A DNA stretch of 64,000 nt from NCBI RefSeq assembly GCF_029318685.1, contig NZ_CP119677.1, positions 3,339,001 to 3,403,000 of the forward strand. The letters are read 5' to 3'. Shown here piece by piece: positions 27,597 through 56,307 of this stretch. The notes beneath the pieces are model-generated. The model was given only the letters and a program-made list of their open reading frames with translations. It searched no databases and had not been told where the DNA came from. A program made the translations under genes and the position numbers. Origin of the DNA: Ruminiclostridium papyrosolvens DSM 2782 (lineage in GTDB: Bacteria > Bacillota > Clostridia > Acetivibrionales > DSM-1351). The first letter of the stretch is position 1. Each line of letters starts with the position of its first letter.

Positions 27597-27620
27597 TTTT
27601 GTCAATAAAAAAAGATGCCG
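27597..27620. other. Left attachment site of element 1 (attL-like)
   Basis: TTTTGT core, CAAT, an A7 run and the arm GATGCCG. The arm is the exact inverse of CGGCATC at the right end. Confidence 0.65.
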
Positions 27621-27675
27621 CAACTTAGGCGGGGCATCATAGGGACAAAAGGTGAATCGGGTATAAATCCCTGTG

Positions 27676-27709
27676 AAGGGGCAGACAGTTTCGGCTGTCT
27701 GCCCCTTTT
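27676..27709 (+). terminator. Left-end terminator hairpin of element 1
   Basis: The 13-bp stem AAGGGGCAGACAG / CTGTCTGCCCCTT has a TTTCGG loop and is followed by TTTTC. The same loop and inner stem recur at 41358 at the left end of element 2. Confidence 0.85.
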
Positions 27710-27710
27710 C

Positions 27711-27835
27711 TTGCTTATGCGGCGGGAATACTTCTGTGATTTTTCACCCGCCACGATCCTTTCAATGAACAATTGCAGGGATGTAGGGTCAATTAAGGCT
27801 TGGACGGAAAAGCGTAAAGATGATGACGTTTTCAA
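27711..27835 (-). pseudogene. C-terminal remnant of a serine recombinase
   Basis: The minus strand encodes LIDPTSLQLFIERIVAGEK...KYSRR, which parallels ITELTPELLRMFIAKVVVGEK...KYSR near the end of the intact recombinase at 41396. Everything upstream, including the catalytic domain, is missing. The frame then runs on into the terminator. Confidence 0.8.
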
Positions 27836-27912
27836 GGTTTTACCGCTGCGAGTACAAAAAGCGCTTTAGCTGGATTAAGGCAGGGAGATTCGTAATGACA
27901 ATACCACACATT

Positions 27913-27942
27913 TTAGCGTGTTTATTACACGCTAATTTTTTT
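27913..27942 (+). terminator. Terminator in front of the sigma factor gene
   Basis: TTAGCGTGT and ACACGCTAA form a 9-bp stem with a 5-nt loop, followed by seven T residues. It stands 66 bp before the sigma factor start. It either blocks read-through from the left or acts as a leader attenuator. Confidence 0.8.
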
Positions 27943-28007
27943 ACCTGTATTGGTAACATTTTGAATGGCTCAGGGGTGTTTATGGTGAAAGGAGGAGGAT
28001 TTTAAAT

Positions 28008-28496
28008 ATGAAGCTACAATCATTGCGTACGGATGATTGTGTTGGAGATGTCATAAAGTTCTATAGCAATATGGTATACCGCCTTGCCTTTGCACGAACA
28101 GGGACAAGACACGATGCTGACGAAATTTTTCAGGAAGTCTTTTTTCGGTATATAAAAAAACAGCCGGTTTTTGAAAATGAAGCCCACAGAAAAGCATGGT
28201 TTATCAAAGTAACTGTCAACTGTTCCAAAAAGCTGTGGGGTTCTGCATGGAAAAGAAAAATTATTCCTTTGGAAGAAACCCTGCAATTTGAAACAAAAGA
28301 AGACATAGATCTTTACAACGAATTACAGCAATTGCCTGCAAAATATCGAGAAGTCATTCATTTATTTTACTATGAAGATATGACTACTGAAGAAATCGCT
28401 AAAGTATTAGAGCGGAAGAACACCACGGTAAGAACTCAGCTTACCCGTGCAAGGGTACTACTCAAAAATATTCTGAAGGAGGATTACGATGTTTAA
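28008..28496 (+). CDS. ECF-type RNA polymerase sigma factor
   Basis: The 162-aa protein has sigma region 2 (NMVYRLAFARTGTRHDADEIFQEVF) and region 4 (LPAKYREVIHLFYYEDMTTEEIA with the TTVRTQLTRAR recognition helix). AAAGGAGGAGG precedes the ATG. The next gene, a DUF4179 membrane protein, overlaps by 8 bp and is its likely anti-sigma or sensor partner. It is carried between the recombinase remnant and the MobC fragment of element 1, i.e. as cargo. Target genes are unknown; the Bce-type module downstream is a candidate. Confidence 0.9.
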   Translation: MKLQSLRTDDCVGDVIKFYSNMVYRLAFARTGTRHDADEIFQEVFFRYIKKQPVFENEAHRKAWFIKVTVNCSKKLWGSAWKRKIIPLEETLQFETKEDIDLYNELQQLPAKYREVIHLFYYEDMTTEEIAKVLERKNTTVRTQLTRARVLLKNILKEDYDV

Positions 28497-29544
28497 AGAA
28501 AGATATAGCCATATGAATAATCAAATTCATCCAAGAGATCAGTTGCTGCAAGATATTTTAGATTCGGCTCATGATGGTGATTGCAGCAAGCGCATTGAGC
28601 CTTTGCGACTGAAAAGGCCTGTTGTGGCTCTGGTTGCCTTGTGTATCTGCCTGACGATGGCAATGCCTGTACTTGCAGCAACAGTAGAACCCATCTATCA
28701 GCTGATGTATATGGTCTCTCCAAGCGTGGCACAATTTTTTATGCCGGTACAAAAATCCAGCGAGAGCAACGGTATAAAGCTGGAGGTGGTTTCCTCATAT
28801 ATTCATGACAACATTGCCGAAATATATGTTACAATGCAAGATTTAACTGGAGACCGCATTGATGGAACCACTGATCTCTTTGACAGCTATTCCATCAATC
28901 GTCCCTTTGATAGTTCGGCCCATTGTCAATTGATAGGCTATGAACAAAACACAAAAACGGCTACCTTTTTAATTACGATAGATGAGTGGGGGAGCCAAAA
29001 CATTGCTGGTGATAAAATTACTTTTTCTGTGCGGGAATTTTTAAGCCATAAAAATAAATATGATGGTCTGGAGATTCCAGTCGAGCTTTCCAGCATTCTT
29101 ACTGCCGAGCGAACTCAAACCGTATCGTCCAACGGTGGCGGCGGCAAGGACTATCAAAGCTATTTGGACTTTGAGAGGAATCCCATTGCTTTAATTCCTT
29201 CTGACCCTATGGAAGCGTTTCCTGTTGACGGCATTGACCTAACCGGAATTGCCTATATTGGCGGGAAACTGCATATTCAGACTGCCGTAAAAGAACCGCT
29301 GGACAATGATAATCACGGTTCATTTTATTTAAAAGATGCAACGGGCACTGACATCAGCTGCAATTACAGTTTCTCCTTTTCTAATCAATATGAACAGCCG
29401 GGGCGCATTGATTACCATGAATACGTCTTTGACATTCCTCAGGAGTATGTTTCAAAATATTTACTGTATGGAGATTTTGTGACATCTGGAATGAAAACAA
29501 AAGGCGACTGGCGAGTTACGTTTCCGTTAGAAAGTACCGAATAA
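28489..29544 (+). CDS. DUF4179-type membrane protein, probable anti-sigma/sensor
   Basis: The 351-aa protein begins with a cytoplasmic part of about 45 residues, then one membrane helix (PVVALVALCICLTMAMPVLAA) and a large external domain of about 280 residues. The segment after the helix (VEPIYQLMYMVSPSVAQFF) is characteristic of DUF4179 proteins, which commonly follow ECF sigma genes. No typical zinc anti-sigma motif is visible in the short N-terminal part, so its mode of sigma control is inferred from pairing alone. AAGGAGG precedes the ATG. Confidence 0.82.
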   Translation: MFKERYSHMNNQIHPRDQLLQDILDSAHDGDCSKRIEPLRLKRPVVALVALCICLTMAMPVLAATVEPIYQLMYMVSPSVAQFFMPVQKSSESNGIKLEVVSSYIHDNIAEIYVTMQDLTGDRIDGTTDLFDSYSINRPFDSSAHCQLIGYEQNTKTATFLITIDEWGSQNIAGDKITFSVREFLSHKNKYDGLEIPVELSSILTAERTQTVSSNGGGGKDYQSYLDFERNPIALIPSDPMEAFPVDGIDLTGIAYIGGKLHIQTAVKEPLDNDNHGSFYLKDATGTDISCNYSFSFSNQYEQPGRIDYHEYVFDIPQEYVSKYLLYGDFVTSGMKTKGDWRVTFPLESTE

Positions 29545-29554
29545 CCAAATTATC

Positions 29555-29725
29555 TGCTTGTGTACCATCTCCGGCAGACTGTCGATGACGATGATTTTCC
29601 GTTTCACCGCCGTGTCTATTATAAATTCCGAGGCCGTTCGGCCTGCCAGTTTTGCTCTGCCGAGAATCGCCTCCTTTTCCTGAGGCGTCATTCGGATGTT
29701 GAATTATTCGCTTTTCATGGTTCAT
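29555..29725 (-). pseudogene. Truncated MobC relaxosome protein
   Basis: Read on the minus strand the region gives MNHEKRIIQ and, in a second frame, RMTPQEKEAILGRAKLAGR then ASEFIIDTAV and IIVIDSLPEM. This is the ribbon-helix-helix MobC pattern also seen at 44869-45174. The two parts are in different frames and the C-terminal half is absent, so it is a broken gene. Confidence 0.75.
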
Positions 29726-29929
29726 GCGCTACTTTCGTTCCACGGGGTGTGGGGCAGCACCCCGGTTTTTATGCTGTGTATCGGACTCACCTCCTGCGTA
29801 ATAATGAATCGTAATTTGAAATTTTCCATTCACAGTGCTATCATTATCGTACAGACAAAATCCAGAGTACACAGGGAGCGCAAATGATGGGTTTTATCGA
29901 AATTTGATTATTTGCAGAAAGAAAAAAAC
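29726..29929. other. Remnant of the mob/rep intergenic region
   Basis: A GC-rich hairpin (GGGGTG...CACCCC near 29744) occupies the position of the oriT-like hairpins of element 2. TTGAAA (29816-29821) and TATCAT (29839-29844), 17 bp apart, match the promoter in front of the intact DUF6076 gene. The RepA-like gene normally present between them has been deleted. Confidence 0.55.
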
Positions 29930-30462
29930 ATGGCGCAGTATCCATATATCCGGGTCTTATACGGCAGCGACGGACTGGTGCATTTAAGGTGGATATCGAC
30001 ACTCTGCGGGATATCCATGACTGGAAGCTAACCGAACAGGAAGACCTGCCGGAGATTATGCATTAGGACGTCAAGGGTGTAAGTCTGATGCCCTATTACC
30101 TGATCGAATATCTGGATGAGATGCTGTTCTTTGAATTTGCCGAGATGCTCAAAAACGGGCAGTATTTCGTGCTGTCGGATAAGCGAAAGCGGAATTTTTG
30201 CGACAGACCGTTTGAGGGCAAGCGAACCTGCAAGCAAGTGGGAGCAAAGCTGTTTTTTGAAAAAGGCGTTGAAGCTGACACGTTTTTATTGCAATATCTC
30301 ATCGAGTACAACAAGGTCTATTCCCGCCGATACCGAGCGGCGGGGAAATATGCCGGGGAGCAGTTCAAGTCTTGGTCTGCCGCCGCCAGTCAGGCCAGGC
30401 GTGACTATGTGGAGGGTAAAATCTCCGGGGTGGAAATGCTGGCAAGGGTACGAGTGGATTAA
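29930..30462 (+). pseudogene. Decayed DUF6076-type gene
   Basis: It starts with AQYPYIRVLYGSD, parallel to EQYPLIKIFEGSD of the intact copy at 46686. It then loses about 220 codons and shifts frame. VDIDTLRDIHDWKL continues up to a TAG where the intact copy has CAG. The rest (SLMPYYLIEYLDE, DKRKRNFCDRP, TCKQVGAKLFF) is open to the normal end. Ten codons holding the first CxxC pair are also deleted in frame. It is certainly non-functional as a full protein. Confidence 0.85.
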
Positions 30463-30655
30463 AGCCAGAGAAAAACAGGTATGTAAGGATTCATTACACA
30501 TCTGCCGCCTTAGCTTGGTTTTAATATTTGTAATCAAGGCTACAAGGCAGAACTATGGGGGTTAGACCACAATTCAGAATATTTAAGAAGTTATCTACTC
30601 TACTCCCCCTAATTTGGATGGGAACGGAAATGATACAATAGAGGACGGTGAGAAC

Positions 30656-31318
30656 TTGGCTAAAATACTGATTGTAGAAGACGAAAAGAGCATAAGCGAT
30701 GAGCTTGCCATTCTATTACAAAACGCGGGATACGATACGGCAGTCATTGAAGATTTTGCGGATACAGAGGCACAGATTAAAAAAACCATGCCCGATCTTG
30801 TTTTGCTAGATATTGGGCTGCCAGGACAGGATGGCTACCGTATCTGCACGGAACTTCGGAAAACCTCTCAGATCCCAGTTATCTTTGTCACCAGCAGGAA
30901 CACCTCCATGGACGAGCTCAGAGCGCTGAGCCTCGGCGGCGACGATTTTATCTCCAAGCCATATGACCTGCCGATCCTGCTGGCCCGTATCCAGGCGCTT
31001 CTTCGCAGGAGCGGCCAGGCCGAAAAAGATATCTTGACGGTGAATGGACTGACCCTTTCGTTACCCAATTGGGAGATTGAACACAACGGGCAGCGTGCGG
31101 ATATCACGAAAAACGAGGCAAAAATCCTGTCCTGCCTGATGAAAACACCCGGTAAAATCGTTTCCCGTTCCGACTTGATCGAATATCTCTGGGATAATCA
31201 GGTCTATATTGACGACAATACACTCAGCGTCAATGTCACGCGCCTGCGGGGCAAACTGAACAATATCGGACTGCCGGACTATGTTAAGACAAAGCGCGGA
31301 TTGGGGTATAAAATATGA
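30656..31318 (+). CDS. OmpR-family response regulator, BceR-type
   Basis: The 220-aa protein has a receiver domain (ILIVEDEKSI, LLDIGLPGQDG with phospho-acceptor Asp, FISKPYD) and a winged-helix DNA-binding domain (LSCLMKTPGKIVSRSDLIEYLW, NVTRLRGKL). I favour the TTG at 30656 because the product then starts AKILIVED as in relatives; the frame also opens with ATG at 30614. Its stop overlaps the kinase ATG. With the next three genes it forms a BceRS-BceAB module, which senses and resists peptide antibiotics acting on cell-wall lipids. Confidence 0.88.
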   Translation: MAKILIVEDEKSISDELAILLQNAGYDTAVIEDFADTEAQIKKTMPDLVLLDIGLPGQDGYRICTELRKTSQIPVIFVTSRNTSMDELRALSLGGDDFISKPYDLPILLARIQALLRRSGQAEKDILTVNGLTLSLPNWEIEHNGQRADITKNEAKILSCLMKTPGKIVSRSDLIEYLWDNQVYIDDNTLSVNVTRLRGKLNNIGLPDYVKTKRGLGYKI

Positions 31319-32328
31319 AGATTGGGGAGTTCATCCACGACCGGATTATGTCCCTGTTGCTGCACTTGTTTTGTATGCTAGCTCTTTCTGCCTTCCTGCT
31401 CCTCACAGGGACAAGCTGGGGAGTTGTTTTTATTATTCTGATTGTATGGGCAACCGGCCTTTGTGCAGTGACTGTGGCCGCTTATTTCAGGCAAAGGAAT
31501 CACATTCGTGAGCTAAAGTCCATCATGGACGGTTTGAATCAAAAGTATCTCTTTATGGAATGTGCTCCCAAGCCAAATGATTATTTTGGGCGCAAAATCT
31601 TCGAGCTTTTCAAGTGCTCCGGAAAGTCGATGATCGAAGCCGTGTCTAATGCGGAGGAAAAGCAGCGGGATTACCGAGAATACATTGAAAACTGGGTGCA
31701 TGAAATCAAGGTTCCCATTACGGCGATTGAACTCATCTGTGAAAACAATAAATCTGAAACCAGTCGGAAAATCCGTTCTCGGCTGGCGCTTATCGAAGGT
31801 CATGTGGAGCGTGCTCTTTACTATGCGAGGCTCGATTGCGTGGAGAAGGATTTTATTATACGGGAGACTTCCCTTGCAGAAACCGTTAAGAAGGCACTGT
31901 CGAGGTATCGCTTCTTACTGACACAGAAAAATATGCGAGTCGAAACTGAAAATTTGGACAAATTCGTTTATACCGACGGAAAATGGGTGGAATTTATGCT
32001 GGGACAGTTTTTATCAAACGCGGTCAAATACAGAAGTGCTTCACCGGTAATCCGCATCTGTGCGGAAGAATCTCACGGTAGAACAAGACTGACGATTAAA
32101 GATAATGGAATCGGTATTCCCATATCGGAGCTGCGGCGAATCTTCGACAAGGGCTTCACAGGCAGTAACGGCCGTGCGCTTGGAGGCTCTACGGGCATGG
32201 GGCTGTACCTTTGCCGAAAGCTTGCCGAAGCCCTGGGTGTATATCTGGAGGCTGATTCAAGAGAAAACGAATACACGGCGATTGCCATTTGCTTTCCGCG
32301 GCCGCTATCTTACGAAAATGAAAGATAG
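31315..32328 (+). CDS. Intramembrane-sensing histidine kinase, BceS-type
   Basis: The 337-aa protein has two membrane helices close together (about residues 13-60) with no extracellular domain. This is the mark of kinases that sense through their ABC transporter. The dimerisation region has WVHEIKVPITAIEL with the phosphorylatable His. The ATPase domain has FLSNAVKY, DNGIGIP, and GSTGMGLYLCRKL. It is translationally coupled to the regulator by an ATGA overlap. Confidence 0.9.
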   Translation: MKIGEFIHDRIMSLLLHLFCMLALSAFLLLTGTSWGVVFIILIVWATGLCAVTVAAYFRQRNHIRELKSIMDGLNQKYLFMECAPKPNDYFGRKIFELFKCSGKSMIEAVSNAEEKQRDYREYIENWVHEIKVPITAIELICENNKSETSRKIRSRLALIEGHVERALYYARLDCVEKDFIIRETSLAETVKKALSRYRFLLTQKNMRVETENLDKFVYTDGKWVEFMLGQFLSNAVKYRSASPVIRICAEESHGRTRLTIKDNGIGIPISELRRIFDKGFTGSNGRALGGSTGMGLYLCRKLAEALGVYLEADSRENEYTAIAICFPRPLSYENER

Positions 32329-32397
32329 CGGAAAGAAATATCGCTACATCAAAAACTTCTTCTGTATTATCATAATGGAGGAAGGAGCGAATAGATT

Positions 32398-33156
32398 ATG
32401 CTGAGAGTTTCACAGATTGAAAAATATTATGGCAGTAAAAATAACGTAACAAAAGCGCTGGATCGGGTCAGCTTTGATGTGGAGAACGGCGAATTCATTG
32501 CCATCATGGGTGCGTCTGGCTCGGGAAAGACCACACTACTCAATTGCATCTCCACAATTGACTCAGTAAGTGCGGGAAATGTATATCTGGACAGTGAGAA
32601 CATCTCCGAAATACCGGAAGAAAAATTGGCGAGATTCCGCCGTGAAAAGCTCGGGTTTGTATTTCAGGACTTCAATCTGCTGGATACTTTGACTATTGAG
32701 GAAAATATCGCCATCACTCTGACGATAAACGAATATCCCCCTGAGCAAGTGAAGGAAAAAGTGAGAAGCGTTGCAAGGCAGCTTGGAATCGATGATATTC
32801 TTTCCAAATTTCCATATCAGGTATCGGGAGGTCAGAAGCAGCGCTGCGCCTGTGCCCGTGCTATGGTGTTCGGTCAGAGCCTGATTTTGGCCGACGAACC
32901 CACGGGAGCGCTGGACTCCAAATCCTCTAAAAACCTGCTGGAGTTGATGGGAAAAATCAACAGGGAAAACGGGACCACTATTCTGATGGTGACCCATGAT
33001 GCGTTCAGTGCCAGCTACGCTCACCGCATTATCTTTTTGAAAGATGGGCGGCTTTTTAACGAACTGTATCATGGCGACAAGCCGCGCAGGGAATTTTTCC
33101 ACGAGATTCTTGATGTGCTCTCCGTTCTGGGAGGTGACACAGACGATGCTCTCTAA
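32398..33156 (+). CDS. ABC transporter ATPase, BceA-type
   Basis: The 252-aa ATPase has Walker A GASGSGKTT, Q-loop FQDFNLLDTL, signature SGGQKQR and Walker B LILADEPTGALD, followed by the switch His in VTHDAF. It is the MacB/BceA subfamily that powers FtsX-like permeases. AAGGAG lies before the ATG. The permease gene overlaps its end by 11 bp. Confidence 0.93.
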   Translation: MLRVSQIEKYYGSKNNVTKALDRVSFDVENGEFIAIMGASGSGKTTLLNCISTIDSVSAGNVYLDSENISEIPEEKLARFRREKLGFVFQDFNLLDTLTIEENIAITLTINEYPPEQVKEKVRSVARQLGIDDILSKFPYQVSGGQKQRCACARAMVFGQSLILADEPTGALDSKSSKNLLELMGKINRENGTTILMVTHDAFSASYAHRIIFLKDGRLFNELYHGDKPRREFFHEILDVLSVLGGDTDDAL

Positions 33157-35104
33157 ACTCTCTCTGCGCAATGCAGCCCGGCAGATGAAAGACTATTTTA
33201 TTTACTTTATCACCATTGCCATTGCTGCCTCGCTGATCTTTGCCTTTAACGCCCTTGTTTTTTCGCAGGAAATAAGAAGCCTTTCCAAACTTCTGGACAC
33301 CTTGCCTTTGATGATTGGCATCGCCAGCTTTGTAGTTGTGTGCATCATCGGCTGGCTTGTCTTTTACACCATGCGTTTTATGATGAAACGCCGCAGCCGG
33401 GAATTCGGCACTTACCTCTTACTTGGCATTGAGCGAAAAAGAATCGTTAACCTGTTTTTCATGGAAAACCTCATCATCGGGGCAGTGGCTCTGCTAATTG
33501 GTTTGCTCACCGGGAACCTCCTATATCAGGGGCTTCGGGCGATGCTGCTGCGCTTATATGAGATACAGTACCACTTCAGCTATGTGTTTTCCCTGTCCGC
33601 AGCGCTACTCACCTTTGTTTATTTTGCGGTGATCTTTATAGTGGCGCTTTTTTTGAATCGGAGAAAAATCAAGAAATCTAAAATTAGCGACCTGATTTAT
33701 ATGGATCAATATAATGAGAAAGAGCTTGCTCCCGACAGCAAAAAACGTAAGAAGCTCTTCGTCGCTTCGATGACGAGCGGAGTTGCCGGAATCGGACTGC
33801 TGATCACCTACGATGCAACGCTTAGCCTGATCGGGGCCTTTGTCATCATCTTTTTCCTGTTTACTTTTTACATCAGCTTTTCTTCTGGAATAGCGGCCTA
33901 TTTTGAAAAGCATGAGAGGAAGAAGTACGGCGGTAATACTCTTTACGTCTTTCGCTCTCTTACGTCTAAGGTCGGCAGCATGGGAATTACGCTGTCGGTT
34001 ATATCCATCTTGCTGACCGCAACGCTGATTGCAGTTGGGACCGGCTTGTCCTTCAACCAACTTTTTATGCGAAATGCGGAGCTTGAAACCGCTCACAGCA
34101 TCTATATAGGCTCGGAACAAGCAACGGATTTTACCGATTACAGGAAATATATTGATAGGAATCTTAATGTAAAAAGCGAATGGCAGTACAATGTTTACAA
34201 GCTGGATAGCGACTCTGTAACCCGGTATGTCGGTCCTTACCGGGATGACTTCCGTGCCTATGATTACGATACCATAATAGCGTTTTCAGACTACACCAAA
34301 ATCAGGGACATGCTTGGATATCAAAAAGTTGCGCTGCCTGAGGGAGAATATATCATCCAGTGTCTGGATTATCTTGCAAAGCCTTTAGAACAGTATAACG
34401 AAACTGTCCAAATCGACGACAGAACGCTGGTCAGGGGCTCGGTATATCACGAAACTTTTACCCAGCAGAGCTGGAATGGAAACGGCAGCGGTTTTATCCT
34501 TGTGGTTCCCGATGAAATCGCAAAAACGCTGCCGGTATCTCACAGTGCCTATGTAGCTATGACCGATGTTCCCGTAACCACGACTGAGTACAAGACGCTG
34601 GACACGATACGCATGGACCGGCATGAAAACAATCACGATGTCGGTTATGATATGATTTACTCCAAAGAAGTTGTGAAGGAGCAGAACGCGTCGTTATACG
34701 CGGTCATTGTCTTTCCGCTGTTTTATGTGGCGCTGGTGCTGCTGATCGTCTCGGCGACCGTTTTGGCGTTCCAGATCCTCAGCGAAATGAAAAGCTATCA
34801 GAACCAATATGCCACTCTACATATGCTTGGAGCTGATAAAAAGTATTTAAACAACGCGCTTCGCAGGCAGTTTGCAGTATATTACGTACTGCCCATATTT
34901 CCCGCTGTGGTAATCAGCAGTATCTTCATATTTTTTCTGTGCATGGCTTTAGACCCCGGTGTGTTTCAGGGTATCGCTCAGATTTTCCTTGTTGTCGGCG
35001 CAACGCTTGCCATATTCTTTTCGGTGTTTGCCATCTACATCGCAGCCTCGTATGTAAACTTAAAAAGAAACGTTTGCCGGGCGCATAAAGATCCTTCTTC
35101 ATAA
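33146..35104 (+). CDS. FtsX-like ABC permease, BceB-type
   Basis: I start it at the ATG at 33146 (652 aa), after GGGAGGTG; the frame is open from 33044 but lies inside the ATPase gene. It opens MLSKLSLRNAARQMKDYFIYF, typical of BceB. About ten membrane helices are visible, with a large extracellular domain between helices 7 and 8 (roughly residues 310-530). That domain is the drug-binding part in relatives. MKSYQNQYATLHMLGADKKYL is the cytoplasmic FtsX motif. The predicted role is removal of bacitracin- or lantibiotic-like peptides from their lipid target. Confidence 0.9.
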   Translation: MLSKLSLRNAARQMKDYFIYFITIAIAASLIFAFNALVFSQEIRSLSKLLDTLPLMIGIASFVVVCIIGWLVFYTMRFMMKRRSREFGTYLLLGIERKRIVNLFFMENLIIGAVALLIGLLTGNLLYQGLRAMLLRLYEIQYHFSYVFSLSAALLTFVYFAVIFIVALFLNRRKIKKSKISDLIYMDQYNEKELAPDSKKRKKLFVASMTSGVAGIGLLITYDATLSLIGAFVIIFFLFTFYISFSSGIAAYFEKHERKKYGGNTLYVFRSLTSKVGSMGITLSVISILLTATLIAVGTGLSFNQLFMRNAELETAHSIYIGSEQATDFTDYRKYIDRNLNVKSEWQYNVYKLDSDSVTRYVGPYRDDFRAYDYDTIIAFSDYTKIRDMLGYQKVALPEGEYIIQCLDYLAKPLEQYNETVQIDDRTLVRGSVYHETFTQQSWNGNGSGFILVVPDEIAKTLPVSHSAYVAMTDVPVTTTEYKTLDTIRMDRHENNHDVGYDMIYSKEVVKEQNASLYAVIVFPLFYVALVLLIVSATVLAFQILSEMKSYQNQYATLHMLGADKKYLNNALRRQFAVYYVLPIFPAVVISSIFIFFLCMALDPGVFQGIAQIFLVVGATLAIFFSVFAIYIAASYVNLKRNVCRAHKDPSS

Positions 35105-35182
35105 GTTTAGCATTAAAAGCAAAATACGACGCTGTCAGATTCCCCTTTACCGGAGAAGTCTCAAGTTGCTGGACAAATAGTC

Positions 35183-35895: not shown

Positions 35896-35963
35896 TTTCG
35901 CATGACTCATTTCTCTTGCGAGAAACTCGCCTAATGCTCAACAGGCTAAAGCCCATAATAAAT

Positions 35964-36009
35964 GAAAATGCCTCATTCCCAGAAGGCTTCTTGGGAATGA
36001 GGCATTTTC
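35964..36009 (+). terminator. Right-end terminator of element 1
   Basis: A perfect 17-bp stem (35964-35980 and 35991-36007; AAAATGCCTCATTCCCA and its complement) with T-rich flanks on both strands. It isolates element 1 from the hydrogenase operon and could also end hydA transcription. Confidence 0.88.
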
Positions 36010-36011
36010 TC

Positions 36012-47808: not shown

Positions 47809-47842
47809 AACAAAGACTGCTCCCGTTGGAACAGCCTTTGTT
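47809..47842. terminator. Bidirectional terminator between convergent genes
   Basis: AACAAAGACTG and CAGCCTTTGTT pair with one mismatch around a 12-nt loop, between the DUF6076 gene and the convergent gene ending at 47874. Confidence 0.65.
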
Positions 47843-47873
47843 GTGGGATAGGATAGAACACTTGCCTTCGCTT

Positions 47874-48693: not shown

Positions 48694-48772
48694 ATTCCCG
48701 CCCTCCTTTAGCAACACAAGATACCACAATTAGAAAATCATAGCTACAAGAAAATATATAAACCCCAGAAGA

Positions 48773-48832
48773 TTGACAGTATGCACAATTATTTGCTATA
48801 ATATGTATGTTGTAAGTTTACAACATACATAT
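48773..48832 (+). promoter_or_regulatory. Promoter and operator of the restriction operon
   Basis: TTGACA (48773-48778) and TATAAT (48797-48802) are 18 bp apart. A perfect palindrome with 15-bp arms (48801-48815 and 48818-48832) and a 2-bp centre covers the end of the -10 box and the start site. It is the natural binding site for the XRE protein encoded next, which would repress the operon. Confidence 0.85.
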
Positions 48833-48850
48833 TAGAAAGGAGGTGTTTCC

Positions 48851-49279
48851 TTGAAGATAGCCCGAAAAGACAAAGTGAAGTTTGGTGCATTGGTAAATAA
48901 ATTTCGGCAAAAGATGCCCCGTGATATGAATCCACTTCGCAAAGTCGCCGCCGAGTGCGATATGAACTTTTCAACACTTAATGACATTGAAAAAGGTGAT
49001 GGTTTTCCTACAGAAGCGGTTGTGCTGCGGCTATCCGAAAACTTGCTTTTATCTGAAAAAGACAAGCATGGTCTTTTGGACAAATACTCGGATATTGCAA
49101 AGGTTGCACCCCCTGATATTGATAGATATCTAATTGCAGAAGACGGAAAAGCGTGGTGGGACGTCCTCCGATTAGCAGAAGGAAAAGATATCCCCCCTGA
49201 CACATTTAAAGAAATCAAGAAAATAATAACCGCATTGGAGGATAAAAAAGATGAGCCAACAGAACAGCCTGAATATTAA
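48851..49279 (+). CDS. XRE-type regulator of the restriction operon
   Basis: The 142-aa protein starts with TTG, seven bases after AAAGGAGG. A helix-turn-helix of Cro/CI type occupies residues 15-75 (LRKVAAECDMNFSTLNDIEKG). The remainder is helical with an acidic tail. It overlaps hsdM by 29 bp. As a controller placed first in a type I RM operon, it probably delays or limits restriction after entry into a new host. Confidence 0.87.
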   Translation: MKIARKDKVKFGALVNKFRQKMPRDMNPLRKVAAECDMNFSTLNDIEKGDGFPTEAVVLRLSENLLLSEKDKHGLLDKYSDIAKVAPPDIDRYLIAEDGKAWWDVLRLAEGKDIPPDTFKEIKKIITALEDKKDEPTEQPEY

Positions 49280-51260
49280 TGAGTATACAAATTTTATTTG
49301 GAAAATTGCCGATTTGCTCCGTGGTGACTATAAGCAGAGTGAATATGGTGATGTTGTTTTACCCTTTACCGTGCTTTGCCGTTTGGATAGCGTTTTGTTG
49401 GCAACGAAGGACAAGGTTTTAGAAATTGACAAGACCTCCAACTTTGGTGACAAGGTCAAAGAAAAATTGTTTGAACAAGCCACCGGCATGAAGTTTTACA
49501 ACAAAAGCAACTTTACTTTCAGAAAGCTAAAAGACGATGCACCCAATATTGCAGAAAATCTGCGTGACTATATAACCTCTTTTTCTGCCAATGTGCAAGA
49601 AATTATGGAGGCATTTAATATTTATGCCCAGATTGAACGGCTTGATAAAGCCGGGCTTCTCTATATGATCATTTCCAAGTATGCCGATGAAATTGATCTG
49701 AGTCCGGAAAAGGTACCCAATGACTTGATGGGTTATATCTTTGAAGAATTGATTCGCCGTTTTTCGGAAATTTCCAACGAGACAGCCGGTGAACACTTTA
49801 CCCCTCGTGAAGTTATTCGGTTAATGGTATCGCTTATTTTTAACGAGGACGGTGCCGAGCTTTCCGAAGATGGTAAAATGACCTCCCTGTACGACCCTGC
49901 GGCCGGTACGGGTGGCATGCTGGCGATTGGTTCTGATTATTTGAAGTCGCTTAATCAAACAATTTATGTAGATTGCTATGGGCAAGAGCTTAACCCGATG
50001 ACCTATGCTGTTTGCAAATCGGACATGCTGATTAAGGGGCAACAGTATGACCGCATTTATCGTGGCAACAGTTTTACTGAGGATGGTACTGCCGGAAAAA
50101 CTTTTTCGTACATGCTCTGCAACCCACCCTTCGGCGTGGAATGGAAGAAGTATGACAAGGCAATCAAAGAAGAAAACGAAAAGCTCGGTTTTGCCGGACG
50201 CTTTGGCGCAGGCCTACCTCGTATTTCTGACGGTTCGTTCCTATTTCTCCAACACATGATTAGTAAAATGAAGCCTGTTGATGAGGGTGGCAGCCGTATT
50301 GCCATTGTTTTTAATGGTTCTCCACTATTTACCGGTGATGCCGGTAGCGGTGAAAGTGAGATTCGCCGTTGGATTATTGAAAACGACTGGCTGGAGACCA
50401 TCGTCGCTCTGCCTGACCAGATGTTTTATAACACCGGCATCTCCACTTATATTTGGATTGTCACCAATCGAAAAAGCAAACTGCGTCAAGGAAAGATACA
50501 GCTGATTAACGCTGCAGATTTTTCAGAAAAGATGCGTAAATCCTTAGGCAGCAAACGAAATCAAATTACCGATACACAGATCAATGAGATTGTTGGTATT
50601 CATAAAGACTTTTTACCCAATGAGTACAGCAAGATTTTTGACAACGAGGATTTTGGATACTGGAAAGTTACGGTCGAACGCCCTGTCCGATACAACTTTT
50701 CCTGTTGCGAAGACCGTGTTTACAGTTTGCCTATTGTCTTTCAGAAAAAGAAAAACTGTACATGGAGCTGGTCACAAAATGATTTAGATGGTCAGCCAAT
50801 GCCACAGGATTTGATTGACCTTAAAAATGATTTGGTCGCCTTGGGCAATGAAGTTTACAGCGATGAAAAGCAATTTAAAGCATTAATTGCGCCAGTGGTA
50901 AAAAAGCACAAGCTCACTGCTATGCAGCAGAGAACACTGCTTTACAATGTGCTTAGTGCAGAGGATGAAAACGGTACCATTTATTTGGACGCTAAGGGAA
51001 ATCAGGTTGCAAATACATCTCTGCGTGATTATGAAACCGTCCCTTTGAAAACGGATATTCAGGAGTATTTTGCGCAGGAGGTTCTGCCCCATGTGCCCGA
51101 TGCATGGATTGATGAGAGCAAAACAAAAAAGGGATATGAAATTCCCTTTACACGGCAGTTTTATAAATATGTTCCGCTGCGTGCAAGCAGTGTAATTTTA
51201 AGTGAAATAAAAGCACTGGAAGATAAGATACAGGCTGATATTGCAGACTTGTTCGAGTAA
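49251..51260 (+). CDS. hsdM: Type I restriction-modification methyltransferase
   Basis: The 669-aa N6-adenine methyltransferase has the helical HsdM N domain (YTNFIWKIADLLRG), then GEHFTPREVIRLMV. The SAM motif DPAAGTGGML and the catalytic NPPFGVEW follow. The C-terminal third is longer than in many HsdM proteins. It overlaps the XRE gene and lies 12 bp before hsdS. With HsdS it protects the host DNA. Confidence 0.95.
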   Translation: MSQQNSLNINEYTNFIWKIADLLRGDYKQSEYGDVVLPFTVLCRLDSVLLATKDKVLEIDKTSNFGDKVKEKLFEQATGMKFYNKSNFTFRKLKDDAPNIAENLRDYITSFSANVQEIMEAFNIYAQIERLDKAGLLYMIISKYADEIDLSPEKVPNDLMGYIFEELIRRFSEISNETAGEHFTPREVIRLMVSLIFNEDGAELSEDGKMTSLYDPAAGTGGMLAIGSDYLKSLNQTIYVDCYGQELNPMTYAVCKSDMLIKGQQYDRIYRGNSFTEDGTAGKTFSYMLCNPPFGVEWKKYDKAIKEENEKLGFAGRFGAGLPRISDGSFLFLQHMISKMKPVDEGGSRIAIVFNGSPLFTGDAGSGESEIRRWIIENDWLETIVALPDQMFYNTGISTYIWIVTNRKSKLRQGKIQLINAADFSEKMRKSLGSKRNQITDTQINEIVGIHKDFLPNEYSKIFDNEDFGYWKVTVERPVRYNFSCCEDRVYSLPIVFQKKKNCTWSWSQNDLDGQPMPQDLIDLKNDLVALGNEVYSDEKQFKALIAPVVKKHKLTAMQQRTLLYNVLSAEDENGTIYLDAKGNQVANTSLRDYETVPLKTDIQEYFAQEVLPHVPDAWIDESKTKKGYEIPFTRQFYKYVPLRASSVILSEIKALEDKIQADIADLFE

Positions 51261-51272
51261 GGGGGTGAAAAT

Positions 51273-53168
51273 GTGGAGCGAAAAAGTATTAAGTTAAAGT
51301 ATTTGTTTAAATTTGGAAAAGGATTAAGCATTACAAAAGAGAATCTGAGCGAGACGGGTATCCCATGTGTTAGCTACGGGCAAGTACATTCAAAATATGG
51401 TGTGATACTTGATATGTCAAAGCATGTACTTCCATTTGTATCTGAAAGCTATTTAGATACATCATCGCAAGCCCTTATTAAAAAGGGGGACTTTGTATTT
51501 GCAGATACATCGGAAGACAAAGGTGGTTCTGGTAACTTTACATGCCTTGTTAGCGATAGCAGTATTTTCGCAGGATATCATACGGTGATAGCACGCCCCG
51601 TTTCCAAAGATGTGTTTTATAAATATTTTGCGTATTTGTTTGATTCGCAGAATTTCAGAGCACAAATTCAGCAGGCCGTAAGTGGAATCAAAGTTTTTAC
51701 AATTTCTCAAGGAACGCTCAAAAATACTATAGCCTCATTCCCAAATATTGATGCGCAAATTGTTATTGCAAATTACCTTGACCGAAAAACCACCCAAATT
51801 GACAGCATTATTGCTGACAAAGAAAAGCTGATTGAACTGCTGAAAGAAAAGCGGCAGGCAATTATCAGTGAAGCGGTTACACGAGGACTTGATCCATCTG
51901 TACCGATGAAAGACAGTGGAGTTGATTGGATTGGACAGATTCCTGAACATTGGGAGGTAAAGCCTTTATTCACAGTAGCATTTGAAAACAAGGCCAAGAA
52001 CAGCGGAAACCAATGTGTCAACCTTTTGAGCTTAAGCTACGGAAAAATTGTTAAAAAAGATATTGATACTAACTTTGGACTGCTGCCCGAATCATTTGAA
52101 ACATATCAGATTGTTGAGGGTGGATATACGATTTTGCGGTTAACTGATTTGCAGAACGATAAGCGTAGCCTGCGCTCTGGATTTGTACGCGAAAAAGGTA
52201 TTATTACTTCTGCATATGTAGGTCTAATCCCCTCTGATGAGGTTGATGGGTTATTCCTTTCTGATTTGCTTCACGCTTACGATTTGATGAAAATCTTTTA
52301 TAGCTTAGGAAATGGCGTTCGCCAGTCCATGAATTATAAAGATTTAAAACGACTCCCTATTCTGTTGCCGCCTAAGTCTGAGCAAAAGCAGATAAGCAAT
52401 TACTTGAGAAATAAAACGGCGGAAATTGACGACTTAATATCCACCACCGAACAGCAAGTTTCTTTATTCAAAGAATACCGTCAATCCATCATTAGCGAAG
52501 CGGTAACGGGAAAAATCAAAGTTGCTGATTCCGAAATAGTAGCAACAGTAGAGCAACCAAAAGCCAAAACAAATGGTGCCAATATTCATTTCAAGCGGCG
52601 TGTGCTAGCTGCACGAATACTGGATAAGCTATGTGCTGAACCAACACTGGGACATGTTAAGTTGGAAAAATTATTGTTTCTGAGTGAATACTGCGCCCAG
52701 TTGGATCTGCACACCGAGTATGCTCGTCATGCTGCCGGGCCGTATAATCCGCAGGTGCTTCGTTCCATTGATGCCCAACTCCCAAAGGCAAAGTGGTTTG
52801 GGTACAACAAAAATAATCATGGCAGCAAATATAGTAAACTTGAAAAAAGTCTGGAATATGTGCCCTATTTCGAATCAAACTTCAGTCAGGAACAGAGCGA
52901 TTGCATCGACAGAATTCTTGGCTTGTTGCGCACTTTGGATACCGAGCATTGCGAAATTATCGCCACGCTCTATGGGGCATGGAATGACTTTTTGATTGAA
53001 GGACAGACCCCCGGCGATGATCAGATTGTCGATGAAGTGCTGACCCATTGGAGCGAAGAAAAGAAACGAATTGACAGAGCCCGCTGGTTGAAAGCGTTGG
53101 AGTGGATGAGGAAAAACCATATGATCCCATGCGGATACGGTAGTAAAACGAAGAGGAGGGATAGCTAA
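51273..53168 (+). CDS. hsdS: Type I specificity subunit fused to an extra C-terminal domain
   Basis: The 631-aa protein starts with GTG after GGGGGTG; the ATG at 51271 is out of frame. Two target-recognition domains are followed by the usual conserved helices (LDRKTTQIDSIIADKEKLIELL; LRNKTAEIDDLISTTEQQVSLF), with DWIGQIPEHWEVKPL between them. HsdS normally ends near residue 430. Here about 190 more residues follow: KLEKLLFLSEYCAQLDL, HAAGPYNPQVLRSIDAQL and a helical end. These resemble the Panacea/DUF4065 pattern, though not with certainty. Confidence 0.9.
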   Translation: MERKSIKLKYLFKFGKGLSITKENLSETGIPCVSYGQVHSKYGVILDMSKHVLPFVSESYLDTSSQALIKKGDFVFADTSEDKGGSGNFTCLVSDSSIFAGYHTVIARPVSKDVFYKYFAYLFDSQNFRAQIQQAVSGIKVFTISQGTLKNTIASFPNIDAQIVIANYLDRKTTQIDSIIADKEKLIELLKEKRQAIISEAVTRGLDPSVPMKDSGVDWIGQIPEHWEVKPLFTVAFENKAKNSGNQCVNLLSLSYGKIVKKDIDTNFGLLPESFETYQIVEGGYTILRLTDLQNDKRSLRSGFVREKGIITSAYVGLIPSDEVDGLFLSDLLHAYDLMKIFYSLGNGVRQSMNYKDLKRLPILLPPKSEQKQISNYLRNKTAEIDDLISTTEQQVSLFKEYRQSIISEAVTGKIKVADSEIVATVEQPKAKTNGANIHFKRRVLAARILDKLCAEPTLGHVKLEKLLFLSEYCAQLDLHTEYARHAAGPYNPQVLRSIDAQLPKAKWFGYNKNNHGSKYSKLEKSLEYVPYFESNFSQEQSDCIDRILGLLRTLDTEHCEIIATLYGAWNDFLIEGQTPGDDQIVDEVLTHWSEEKKRIDRARWLKALEWMRKNHMIPCGYGSKTKRRDS

Positions 53169-56100
53169 TGGCACTGGATACCAGAGAAAAAATATTTGAA
53201 ACAGAAATTGAATATAGCCTTACAACCTTTGGCGGCTATGAGAAAGGTAACCCCTCCGATTTTAGTGCATTGCTTGGTATGGACGCAAAAACAGTCTTGC
53301 GATTCATTCAAAATACGCAGCCGAAGTCTTGGGAAAGTCTTTGCAAACGGCATGGAGACTGTGTACCGCAAAACTTTATTAAGCGCCTTTCGGACGAGCT
53401 AAAAAACCGGGGCACACTTGATGTGCTACGCCATGGTGTAAAAGATTTGGGCGTAGAGGTTGCTTTGTGCTACTTTAAGCCCGCCAACCAGATGAACAAG
53501 ACTACCGTTGAGCGTTACCAAGCAAACATTCTAACGGTTATGAGACAGGTGCATCACAGCGTTTCCAAGCCTAAGGATTCTGTGGATACAGTCCTCTTGC
53601 TGAACGGCCTGCCTATCGTTACACTGGAGCTGAAAAATCCACTTACTGGTCAAAGCTATTCCAACGCCATCCAGCAGTATGAGGAAGACCGCAGCAACAA
53701 AGACACCTTGTTTGCTTTCAAGCGAGGTGCATTGGTGCATTTTGCGGTTGATACCGAAGAAGCATATATGACCACTAAACTTGCAGGAAAGGGTACTGTT
53801 TTTCTGCCGTTCAACAAGGGAAACAATGGTGGTGCAGGAAACCCGGTCAACCCTAATGGCTTCCGTACTGCTTATTTGTGGGAAGAAGTTCTTGTAAAGG
53901 ATAGCTTGTTGGACATTATCGAACGATATCTCCACCTCAAAAAAGAGGAGGACACAAAAACAGGGAAGTTGAAAGAAAGTCTGATTTTCCCTCGTTATCA
54001 TCAGCTTGAAGTCGTTCGCCTTTTAATTTCTGATGCAAAGGAAAACGGTGCTGGGCATAACTATTTGATTCAACATTCTGCCGGTTCGGGCAAATCAAAC
54101 TCAATTGCGTGGTTGGCACATCATTTATCCACGCTGCATGATAGTGAAAGTCAGGTAGTATTCAATAGCATTGTTGTCATTACTGACCGGCGAGTGTTGG
54201 ATCGGCAGTTGCAAGATACCATTTATCAATTCGAGCATGTAGACGGTGTTGTGGCACGGATTGATGAAAAAAGCAGTATATCTAAATCAAAGCAGCTTAC
54301 CGATGCCCTGAATAACAATGCTAAAATTATCATCACCACCTTGCAGACCTTTCCGTTTATTTTGGATAAAGTGGAGCACTCCTCAGAAAAGAAATTCGCC
54401 GTTATTGTAGATGAAGCTCATTCCTCACAAACAGGCAAGGCGAGTGAAAAGCTCAAGGAAGCTTTAGCGGAAATTGAAACAAAGGGAGATGATGAGATTG
54501 AAGAAAAGCTCCATCAATTTGCAGAAACAGAAGCTCGCATTGAGAGCCAGACAGATGACAGTGAAGATGAAGTAGCCAGAGAGATGGCAAGTCACGGCAT
54601 TCAACAGAATCTATCCTTCTTTGCCTTTACTGCAACGCCCAAGCAAAAAACACTGGAGATTTTTGGCACTCGCGGGACAGATGGCTTACCGCATGCTTTT
54701 CATGTGTACAGTATGAGACAGGCGATTGAGGAAAATTTTATCCTTGATATATTGGAAAACTATACGACATACCAAACATATTTCCAAGTGGGCAAAAAAA
54801 TTGCGGACGATCCTCTCTATGGTAAAAGCAAGGCAAATAAGGCTTTGGGTAAATTTTTAAGTTTGCATCCACACAATTTAGCGCAGAAAACAGAAATCAT
54901 CATTGAGCATTTTCGCAGTGTTACTCAGCATGAAATTGGTGGCAAAGCTAAGGCTATGCTGGTTACCGGTTCAAGACTTCATGCTGTTAGATACTATTTT
55001 GAGTTTCTGAAATACATAAAAAAGATGAAGTATAAAGATCTCGGTGTGTTGGTCGCCTTCTCCGGAATAGTTAAGGACGATGGTGCGGATTATACTGAGT
55101 CAGGGCTCAACAAGTTTGCAGAGAGCGAATTGCCAGAGCGTTTTGAGGGTGAAGAATATCAAATCCTATTGGTAGCAGAAAAGTACCAAACTGGGTTTGA
55201 CCAGCCGCTGCTACACACCATGTATGTGGACAAGAAACTGTCCGGTGTAAAAGCGGTGCAGACACTTTCGCGCTTAAACCGTATGTGCTATGGTAAAAGC
55301 GATACGTTTGTGCTCGATTTCGCCAACACCAAAGAGGAGATTTTCGAAGCGTTTCAGCCTTATTATGAGCGCACCGATGTGGATGACATTACCGATCCAA
55401 ACTTGGTCTATGATTTAAAAACCACTTTGGATGGCTACCGCATTTACACGGAGTCAGAAGTTAAATCCTTTGCAAGAATCTTTTTTAAAGATTCTGCAAA
55501 GCAAACCGAGCTGGACTTCGGAAAGCTCAGTCCCTATCTTGATCCCGCGATAGACAGATATTGTGCAATGGAAAGCGAACTTGAACAGAAAGAATTCAAG
55601 GTCACCTTGAGGAAGTTTATCCGTCTGTATTCTTTTATCTGTCATATCATTAAGCTTAATGATTCTGACCTACACAAGTTTAGTGCCTTTGCAAAGTGTT
55701 TGCTCCGCAAGCTTCCTGCGGATGGTAAGAGCAAAACTCCAAACTTGGATAATGACGTAGCTCTACAATACTATCGTTTGCAGAAAATCTTTGAAGGCAA
55801 AATACAACTTGAAAATCAAACTGGAGTCTTACCAGGAGGTAGACACGGTGCAGGGCTGCCGCCAGAAGAAGAAAAGGCTACCCTTAGTGAGCTCATTGCT
55901 AAACTCAATGAACGTTTAGGCACAACATTTACAGAGATGGATAAGGTTATTGAGCAGTTTGTCGAGGACATGGCTAAAAACCCAGAAATGCAGCTCCGTG
56001 CAAAGAATCCAATGGATATGTTCCAAGTAGCCTATGAAAACAATATCATGGATGTGGTCATTGCTCGACTGCAGCAAAATCAAGATTTCTGCACAAAGTA

Positions 56101-56185
56101 TATTGAGGATAACGATTTCCGTTTAGAGATAGACAAAATAGTCCTGCCTCTTGTGCATGAACGCATTGCAACACAACAACTATAA
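53168..56185 (+). CDS. hsdR: Type I restriction endonuclease subunit
   Basis: The 1005-aa motor-nuclease begins at an ATG sharing its first A with the hsdS stop. The N-terminal nuclease has LNGLPIVTLELKNPLTGQ. The helicase has Walker A QHSAGSGKSNS, DEAHSSQ, FTATP and the late QTLSRLNRM motif. A helical C-terminal part mediates assembly. It cuts unmodified DNA after translocation. The complete M-S-R operon suggests a working system. Confidence 0.96.
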   Translation: MALDTREKIFETEIEYSLTTFGGYEKGNPSDFSALLGMDAKTVLRFIQNTQPKSWESLCKRHGDCVPQNFIKRLSDELKNRGTLDVLRHGVKDLGVEVALCYFKPANQMNKTTVERYQANILTVMRQVHHSVSKPKDSVDTVLLLNGLPIVTLELKNPLTGQSYSNAIQQYEEDRSNKDTLFAFKRGALVHFAVDTEEAYMTTKLAGKGTVFLPFNKGNNGGAGNPVNPNGFRTAYLWEEVLVKDSLLDIIERYLHLKKEEDTKTGKLKESLIFPRYHQLEVVRLLISDAKENGAGHNYLIQHSAGSGKSNSIAWLAHHLSTLHDSESQVVFNSIVVITDRRVLDRQLQDTIYQFEHVDGVVARIDEKSSISKSKQLTDALNNNAKIIITTLQTFPFILDKVEHSSEKKFAVIVDEAHSSQTGKASEKLKEALAEIETKGDDEIEEKLHQFAETEARIESQTDDSEDEVAREMASHGIQQNLSFFAFTATPKQKTLEIFGTRGTDGLPHAFHVYSMRQAIEENFILDILENYTTYQTYFQVGKKIADDPLYGKSKANKALGKFLSLHPHNLAQKTEIIIEHFRSVTQHEIGGKAKAMLVTGSRLHAVRYYFEFLKYIKKMKYKDLGVLVAFSGIVKDDGADYTESGLNKFAESELPERFEGEEYQILLVAEKYQTGFDQPLLHTMYVDKKLSGVKAVQTLSRLNRMCYGKSDTFVLDFANTKEEIFEAFQPYYERTDVDDITDPNLVYDLKTTLDGYRIYTESEVKSFARIFFKDSAKQTELDFGKLSPYLDPAIDRYCAMESELEQKEFKVTLRKFIRLYSFICHIIKLNDSDLHKFSAFAKCLLRKLPADGKSKTPNLDNDVALQYYRLQKIFEGKIQLENQTGVLPGGRHGAGLPPEEEKATLSELIAKLNERLGTTFTEMDKVIEQFVEDMAKNPEMQLRAKNPMDMFQVAYENNIMDVVIARLQQNQDFCTKYIEDNDFRLEIDKIVLPLVHERIATQQL

Positions 56186-56225
56186 AAGCAACCGCACAGG
56201 ATTTTGTCCTGTGCGGTTGCTTTTT
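56185..56225 (+). terminator. Right-end terminator of element 2
   Basis: A perfect 17-bp stem (56185-56201 / 56207-56223) with a 5-nt loop and TTTTT starts at the last base of the hsdR stop codon. Confidence 0.92.
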
Positions 56226-56304
56226 CCGTATTCAGTTTACCTTGAACCTCGGTTCACAAGTTGTCTTTATGACTACTCCTCTTTGGTTGTCAGGGTACTT
56301 TTTT
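56226..56304. repeat. Conserved right-end sequence of element 2
   Basis: It begins CCGTATTCAGTTTACC and continues through GGTTCACAAGTTGTC to the T run. It aligns with 36012-36090 of element 1. Confidence 0.75.
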
Positions 56305-56307
56305 AGG
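56290..56307. other. Right attachment site of element 2 (attR-like)
   Basis: Arm TCAGGGTAC, six T residues, AGG; the core TTTTAGG at 56301-56307 repeats that at 41276. Confidence 0.68.

What the first reader, a model, noticed from the sequence alone, without database searches (positions are those of the whole stretch)
27597..56307. Two related serine-recombinase elements bracket the hydrogenase operon
Both elements share left-end hairpins with a TTTCGG loop, about 80 bp at their right ends, and the gene order recombinase-mobC-DUF6076. Element 1 ends 10 bp from the hydA stop codon, and element 2 begins about 130 bp upstream of hydC, leaving the promoter intact. Two independent insertions of the same family immediately on each side of one core operon suggest a hotspot, or recombinases that favour this neighbourhood.
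Basis: partly seen in the sequence, partly recalled or inferred. Interest (0 to 1): 0.8.

Follow-up and report, generated by a model that had tools for sequence, protein, structure and literature searches.

The report
Mobile elements inserted into transcription terminators
Two related mobile DNA elements flank a hydrogenase operon because their recombinase family inserts DNA into the hairpin loop of transcription terminators at gene ends, and most of these elements carry a terminator-like hairpin just inside one end that could replace the one they split.

Summary
Both elements are real insertions, but "hotspot at the hydrogenase operon" is not the best reading. Three same-genus genomes (G008, G005, G002) hold both empty sites. 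Each empty site is an intact intrinsic-terminator hairpin: hydA's for element 1, the neighbouring chemoreceptor-like gene's for element 2. Each element sits in the loop, at an AA/TT dinucleotide. The outermost "inverted repeats" are therefore the two arms of the host terminator and differ between elements; the shared ends lie inside.

The pattern recurs. In 12 insertions with both ends assigned, the arms of one insertion are complementary and arms of different insertions are not (0 of 100,000 permutations). Two further insertions have intact terminators in relatives. Fourteen of 15 right ends carry a strong terminator-like hairpin inside.

Element 2 looks complete: DUF4368 serine recombinase, MobC, relaxase, type I restriction-modification cargo. 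Element 1 is decayed, without intact recombinase or mobC. The rule weakens in distant relatives, and one at 39.6% identity appears to lie in coding DNA. Ten library searches gave no paper showing serine-recombinase insertion into terminator loops; one 2020 paper guesses "promoters or terminators" for streptococcal elements.

The parts
27607..27624 (.). Host DNA: T-tract-side arm and loop part of the hydA terminator, left of element 1
   Evidence: Empty-site terminator intact in G008, G005, G002; coordinates
27625..36072 (.). Element 1 (decayed mobilizable element), crossover TT at both ends
   Evidence: Empty site in G008, ends compared
27678..27705 (+). Left-end hairpin of element 1 (TTTCGG loop), -27.3 kcal/mol for 27675-27716
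27722..27779 (-). Scrap matching the recombinase C-terminal region of relatives L134 and L170
   Evidence: DNA match 86% over 50 nt and 79% over 58 nt
28008..29544 (+). Sigma-70-family sigma factor (28008-28496) and a DUF4179-like partner gene (28489-29544, below Pfam cut-off), cargo or replacement
29785..30476 (+). Remnant: region upstream of DUF6076 plus broken DUF6076 gene
30614..35104 (+). Element 1 cargo: response regulator, histidine kinase, ABC ATPase, FtsX-like permease
35179..35960 (.). IS200/IS605-type insertion sequence inside element 1 (transposase 35329-35793, minus)
35964..36009 (-). Terminator-like hairpin just inside the right end of element 1; could end the hydA transcript
   Evidence: -31.9 kcal/mol
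36012..36072 (.). Conserved right end of element 1 (attP half)
36073..36090 (.). Host DNA: A-tract-side arm of the hydA terminator, right of element 1
36102..41145 (-).
41286..41305 (.). Host DNA: T-tract-side arm of the chemoreceptor-like gene's terminator, left of element 2
   Evidence: Empty site in G008, G005, G002
41306..56283 (.). Element 2 (complete-looking integrative mobilizable element), crossover TT at both ends
41360..41383 (+). Left-end hairpin of element 2 (TTTCGG loop), -21.3 kcal/mol for 41355-41392
41396..43150 (-). Large serine recombinase, 584 aa (Resolvase, Recombinase, Zn ribbon, DUF4368)
   Evidence: nearest solved chain TnpX 2mhc
43181..43474 (-). Small protein of 97 aa between recombinase and relaxase, no family match
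43487..44887 (-). Relaxase (PF03432)
44869..45174 (-). NikA/MobC-like mobilization protein
45393..46517 (-). AAA_25 ATPase
46518..47774 (+). DUF6076 protein, 418 aa
47874..48729 (-). DUF6550 (47874-48455) and DUF6809 (48370-48729) proteins
49251..56185 (+). Type I restriction-modification cargo: methyltransferase, specificity and restriction subunits
56184..56225 (-). Terminator-like hairpin just inside the right end of element 2; could end the chemoreceptor-like gene's transcript
   Evidence: -29.1 kcal/mol for 56186-56232
56226..56283 (.). Conserved right end of element 2 (attP half)
56284..56304 (.). Host DNA: A-tract-side arm of the chemoreceptor-like gene's terminator, right of element 2

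Best explanation
Elements 1 and 2 are separate insertions of one family of serine-recombinase mobilizable elements whose chromosomal target (attB) is the hairpin of an intrinsic transcription terminator. Shown: each element lies between the two arms of a terminator that is intact in relatives, with the crossover at an AA/TT dinucleotide in the loop; the outer arms differ from site to site while the inner ends are conserved and form an imperfect dyad (attP); in nearly all right ends a terminator-like hairpin sits just inside. Inferred: the recombinase encoded by element 2 recognises the dyad A-tract, GC arm, AA loop, GC arm, T-tract as duplex DNA, exchanges strands at AA and so inserts between genes without breaking one; the inner hairpin then ends the host transcript in place of the split terminator; transfer uses the element's relaxase and MobC-like protein with a helper conjugation system. 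Element 1 is a decayed member that lost its recombinase and mobilization genes.
For: Empty sites that are intact terminators: 3 relatives for each of elements 1 and 2, 4 relatives for a third right end in this genome, 1 for the C. sporosphaeroides insertion G041. Outer arms of 12 insertions complementary: mean 14.25 against 7.57 (sd 0.78, max 12.9) in 100,000 permutations. All 12 reach a score that 3.7% of 2,273 sampled A-tract/AA/T-tract sites reach. TTTT 8-17 nt beyond the left end in 15 of 18 (background 8.5%); AAAA 13-24 nt before the right end in 14 of 16 (background 10.3%). Inner terminator-like hairpin in 14 of 15 right ends against 5 of 36 random internal stretches. A same-strand ORF stop within 250 nt of 16 of 16 right ends, within 85 nt of 13.
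Against: No integration was observed; catalysis by this recombinase is inferred. Among 33 more distant relatives (39-71% identity) a crude scan sees arm plus TTTT in 21, against 16% background, and in the 55-65% range in only 5 of 9, one of which seems spurious. In a 43%-identity subfamily two pairs fit and one (G320) does not (by eye). A Klebsiella plasmid relative (39.6%) has no T-tract at its end and adjoins a CDS. L068, L071 and L134 lack TTTT in the set window, L089 and L134 lack AAAA. The inner terminators are predictions. In one pair (G040) the true partner ranks second, in two (G046, G044) it is tied.
Confidence: 0.85

Rival explanations
1. The recombinase only prefers a symmetric AT-rich site (A-run, spacer, AA, spacer, T-run). 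Terminators are hit because they supply such sites, and complementarity of the arms plays no part.
For: Tract positions are fairly fixed. Durrant et al. 2022 describe a TT core with T- and A-rich ends for one multi-targeting recombinase (PMC10083194, passages). Serine integrases bind duplex DNA half-sites (PMC3783163, passages).
Against: Only 3.7% of 2,273 sampled sites with A-tract, AA and T-tract reach the lowest arm score of the 12 insertions, all of which reach it. The background includes real terminators.
Confidence: 0.2
2. The neighbourhood of the hydrogenase operon is an insertion hotspot.
For: Two of three right ends found in this genome lie about 20 kb apart around one operon. An IS200-type element lies in element 1 and, at the same intergenic region, in G002.
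Against: The two elements use terminators of two different genes. G008, G005 and G002 carry no such element at either site. Relatives in other genera sit at unrelated loci.
Confidence: 0.06
3. The outer inverted repeats are element-borne terminal repeats, and the elements do not target terminators.
For: They are symmetric and terminal, as in a transposon.
Against: They differ between insertions while inner ends are conserved, and they are present, with both arms changed together, in genomes without the element.
Confidence: 0.02
4. Insertion is near random, and only insertions in terminators survive selection because they do little harm.
For: All insertions examined in the close family are between genes or at gene ends as far as the ORF scan shows.
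Against: Selection against damage would accept any place between genes; it does not explain a crossover in the loop, at AA, in a fixed register.
Confidence: 0.04

Closest known systems
Multi-targeting DUF4368 / TndX-like clade of large serine recombinases (Durrant et al. 2022, PMC10083194; passages seen)
   Same: Same domain set with DUF4368; one recombinase type with many targets; TT core with T- and A-rich target ends reported there
   Different: Targets are described there as relaxed or AT-rich; terminator, hairpin and palindrom have 0 occurrences in its main text. Here the target is a terminator hairpin
Tn4451/TnpX mobilizable elements of Clostridia (PMC5704250, passages; solved TnpX domain 2mhc)
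   Same: Serine recombinase plus mobilization gene, low target specificity; catalytic domain related (E 2.7e-39)
   Different: Tn4451 relaxase is MobV by the review; element 2 has PF03432. Tn4451 is recalled to use a GA dinucleotide; here AA/TT
Serine-integrase IMEs of Streptococcus salivarius (PMC7563491, passages)
   Same: Serine integrase, insertions between genes; the authors suggest targets in promoters or terminators
   Different: Relaxase of family PF13814; the suggestion is not worked out in the passages seen
IME_Rho_tet (PMC12904643; abstract, outline, passages, two sections)
   Same: IME with serine recombinase, relaxase and mobC; 3' boundary 81-90 bp behind the recombinase stop, like element 2 (88 bp)
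   Different: Inserted in a MAFF2-encoding ORF of larger elements, with conserved 21-bp element repeats and a tet gene; terminator has 0 occurrences
Group IIC introns (PMC7923331, passages)
   Same: Target a terminator stem-loop
   Different: Retroelement inserting downstream of the stem, not a serine recombinase in the loop
TnGBS-type conjugative elements (as described in PMC7563491, passages)
   Same: A generic transcription signal used as a many-site target that spares genes
   Different: Promoter, not terminator; DDE transposase

Membership tests
Integrative and mobilizable element (IME) | Encodes its own integrase | tested here: met
   Element 2: intact 584-aa serine recombinase. Element 1: not met, scrap only
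Integrative and mobilizable element (IME) | Relaxase or mobilization genes but no conjugation machinery | tested here: met
   Element 2: PF03432 relaxase and NikA/MobC-like protein; none of 12 element 2 proteins scanned matched a conjugation-pore family; short ORFs were not scanned
Integrative and mobilizable element (IME) | Excises and is transferred | not testable with these tools
   Empty sites in relatives show only that insertion happened
DUF4368 multi-targeting serine recombinases | Resolvase, Recombinase, Zn ribbon and DUF4368 domains | tested here: met
DUF4368 multi-targeting serine recombinases | Near-identical recombinases at many different targets | tested here: met
   14 loci at 78-96% identity, all with different flanks
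DUF4368 multi-targeting serine recombinases | TT core dinucleotide | tested here: met
   AA/TT at the junctions; the register was set by looking for AA within 4 nt, so this is partly by construction; supported by empty sites for both window elements
Tn4451/TnpX family | MobV-type relaxase | tested here: not met
   Relaxase matches PF03432 only
Tn4451/TnpX family | GA central dinucleotide (recalled) | tested here: not met
   Core is AA/TT
IME_Rho_tet | Ribosomal-protection tetracycline resistance gene | tested here: not met
   No such family among the element 2 proteins scanned
IME_Rho_tet | Its conserved 21-bp inverted repeats | not tested
   The motif's letters were not seen in the passages read
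Terminator-targeting element (proposed here) | Two arms of one host terminator flank the element | tested here: met
   12 insertions; intact terminators in relatives for 4 insertions
Terminator-targeting element (proposed here) | Terminator-like hairpin inside the right end | tested here: met
   Predicted in 14 of 15
Terminator-targeting element (proposed here) | The inner hairpin ends the host transcript in the cell | not testable with these tools
   Needs RNA 3'-end mapping

The most novel reading that the evidence does not exclude
A large part of the DUF4368 'multi-targeting' serine-recombinase clade is not loosely AT-preferring but reads the intrinsic terminator as a generic attB: A-tract, GC arm, AA loop, GC arm, T-tract. 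Its elements have evolved to replace the terminator they split, so they can enter almost any genome at very many gene ends at little cost.
Probability: 0.45. Interest if true: 0.87.

Novelty: new variant of a known kind. Interest (0 to 1): 0.75.

Why it matters
It would replace 'multi-targeting, AT-rich' by a testable rule for where a widespread group of mobile elements inserts: 52 of 391 sampled genomes of the class hold a relative at E <= 1e-120, though only part of the distant ones seem to follow the rule. It would explain how such elements move between genera without breaking genes, give a way to find their ends (split terminators), and bear on the target rules of recombinases from this clade that are being developed as integration tools (PMC10083194, passages).

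Tried and rejected
Hotspot at the hydrogenase operon, element-borne terminal repeats and survival of random insertions: see rivals. A-tract/T-tract preference alone: disfavoured, not excluded.

Orientation rule: right ends have a same-strand ORF stop within 250 nt in 16 of 16, left ends a convergent stop within 75 nt in 12 of 18 (L064 has only 22 nt of flank), so most sites lie between convergent genes and orientation relative to the terminator could not be settled.

Led nowhere: one scan of viral contigs found no relative; the empty-site search for G047 found no collinear relative among 41 genomes; an exact-pattern search for a right-end motif in 11 genus genomes found only element 2; L170 was fetched on the wrong side of the G009 element, so only its left end was of use, and the right side came later as L201; the left end of the third copy in this genome was not found in the 19 kb searched; Rfam gave only a ZMP/ZTP riboswitch outside the elements. 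The fixed-rule terminator scan did not list the G008 empty sites, probably because its loop limit and T-run window do not fit them. One fold (L143) was given the wrong stretch, so the G673 empty site rests on reading the sequence.

Rows dropped before counting: the weak right-end hits L087, L088, L091-L095 and L097 (three of them, L091, L095 and L097, share only the inner right-end motif); L086 in the inner-hairpin count, too short; L123 (short), L127 and L128 (already counted as L063 and L068). In the 12 pairs, five (G046, G050, G051, G044, G040) were matched by genome, not by contig; in G046 I chose one right end of three.

Literature: ten searches. None showed serine-recombinase insertion into terminators. 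The library lacks most subscription papers, the Tn5397 target-site paper among them.
Full report
What the window holds. [quoted passage not shown] Element 1 carries a sigma factor, a two-component system and an ABC transporter. Compared with the relative in G673 (L134, which by reading of its ORFs has recombinase, relaxase, MobC-like protein, DUF6076 and another type I system), element 1 keeps the two ends, a scrap at the recombinase C-terminal end, the region upstream of DUF6076 and a broken DUF6076.

Empty sites. I took the hydA region from 16 relatives. In G008 the window's flanks of element 1 join directly, and so do those of element 2. In G005 and G002 element 2's site is likewise continuous, and the hydA terminator is intact, with extra sequence (in G002 an IS200-type copy) between it and the next gene. 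The six other genus genomes fetched are not collinear with the window beside hydA and say nothing. Each empty site is a hairpin with an A-tract before and a T-tract after; three of them fold at -20.4 to -21.0 kcal/mol, z-scores -4.0 to -6.5. Aligned with the element ends they put the crossover at AA (TT on the plus strand) in the loop. The outer repeats of element 1 (GATGCC) and element 2 (GTACCCTG) are thus the arms of two different host terminators; the related ends lie inside. The gene behind element 2's right end (56320-58350, minus) I call chemoreceptor-like from its translation; no family search was run on it.

Is it general? A scan of one genome per species gave 15 loci with relatives of the recombinase. 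In 14 of them the DNA behind the recombinase is conserved up to a motif like ACTCGCCTAA and then becomes unrelated between loci, mostly a GC-rich arm followed by a T-run. The fifteenth, L073, re-fetched as L138, has both ends. A search of 13 of these genomes with the right end gave matches in 12 at E <= 1; I kept the convincing ones. With elements 1 and 2 and L134 this makes 18 left and 16 right ends. For 12 insertions both ends are assigned. The complementarity score of the two outer arms averages 14.25; in 100,000 permutations of partners the mean is 7.57, sd 0.78, maximum 12.9, and none reaches the observed mean. The true partner is best in 9 of 12, tied for best in 2 and second in 1.

Controls. 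TTTT starts 8-17 nt beyond the left end in 15 of 18 (866 of 10,200 random positions, 8.5%); AAAA lies 13-24 nt before the right end in 14 of 16 (989 of 9,600, 10.3%). In 909 kb of fetched sequence 15,118 AA sites have an A-tract and a T-tract at such distances; of 2,273 sampled, 3.7% reach the lowest arm score of the 12 insertions. So the hairpin, and not the tracts alone, marks the targets. Two more insertions have empty counterparts. A third right end in this genome, at 250,863, follows a gene stop and the arm ATAAAAACCCGAGGGC; G005, G008, G006 and G002 have a whole hairpin there, while the six other genus genomes differ. The Clostridium sporosphaeroides insertion (G041) faces an uninterrupted hairpin in the unnamed G673 (by eye). 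G009, same genus, has an element 1-like insertion whose arms match (by eye); it is not in the 12.

How it probably works. Serine integrases bind attP and attB as two half-sites and exchange strands around a central dinucleotide (PMC3783163, passages). An intrinsic terminator offers a ready-made dyad with an A-tract and a T-tract at its outer edges. I infer that the recombinase reads this as attB. Insertion in the loop spares genes but splits the terminator. Just inside the right end, 14 of 15 elements have a strong terminator-like hairpin, against 5 of 36 random internal stretches. By reading that list there are about nine different hairpin sequences among the 14. In the window these hairpins (folds -31.9 and -29.1 kcal/mol) could end the transcripts of hydA and of the chemoreceptor-like gene. 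That the inner hairpins replace the lost terminator is inference.

Limits. In more distant relatives (39-71% identity) a crude scan sees a GC-rich arm plus TTTT behind 21 of 33 recombinases, against 16% (991 of 6,200) by chance. In the 55-65% range it is 5 of 9, one of them (L099) probably an accident of the scan. In a subfamily at about 43% identity two pairs fit by eye (G006 first copy, G254), one does not (G320), and one copy has lost its left end. A Bacillus badius plasmid relative ends at a T-tract. A Klebsiella plasmid relative (39.6%) has no T-tract, and an annotated CDS starts right behind its end, so it seems to lie in coding DNA; its other end was not looked at. The claim is firm for the close family (about 70% identity and above) and open for the clade; the probability of the novel case is set at 0.45 for this reason.

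What is known. Durrant et al. 2022 (passages) report a clade rich in DUF4368, with TndX-like recombinases, that is multi-targeting, and one member with a TT core and T- and A-rich ends; 'terminator' and 'hairpin' do not occur in the main text. A 2020 paper on Streptococcus salivarius (passages) suggests that some serine-integrase elements target promoters or terminators. The IME review (passages) describes serine-recombinase IMEs as mostly inserted in genes, with Tn4451 of low specificity; 'terminator' does not occur. IME_Rho_tet (abstract, outline, passages, two sections) sits in an ORF. Two further papers on Tn916 and on C. difficile elements (passages) describe AT-rich or site-specific targets. 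Terminators as targets are known for group IIC introns (passages) and, from memory, for Tn7 near glmS. The ten searches listed gave no paper showing terminator-loop insertion by a serine recombinase.

Verdict. Terminator-loop insertion is well supported as anatomy; recognition, catalysis and terminator replacement are untested. Why two elements flank this one operon stays open.

Noticed in passing
window 35179-35960; L048 7651-8432; L054 9851-10135; window 15079-15184: An IS200/IS605-type insertion sequence lies in element 1 just before its right end; a copy 88% alike sits in the region behind hydA in G002, a piece 90% alike at a contig end in G003, and about 100 bp of it also match window 15079-15184.
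   Followed up: partly
G000:C1:250863 (L200 1364 onward): A third right end of the family in this genome, with a terminator arm before it and an inner hairpin behind it; its left end was not found in 19 kb.
   Followed up: partly
G009:C65:251750-259146 (L201): A second element 1-like insertion in the genus, about 7.4 kb, at another terminator; its recombinase ORF is short (210 aa in L170), so it looks decayed too.
   Followed up: partly
L134; [quoted passage not shown]
   Followed up: no
L113, L179-L183 (G006, G323, G264, G320, G215, G254): A second subfamily (about 43% identity to element 2's recombinase) is 97-100% identical among six genomes of different genera, which suggests recent spread.
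   Followed up: partly
window 19068-19145: ZMP/ZTP riboswitch, the only Rfam match in the window at gathering threshold.
   Followed up: no
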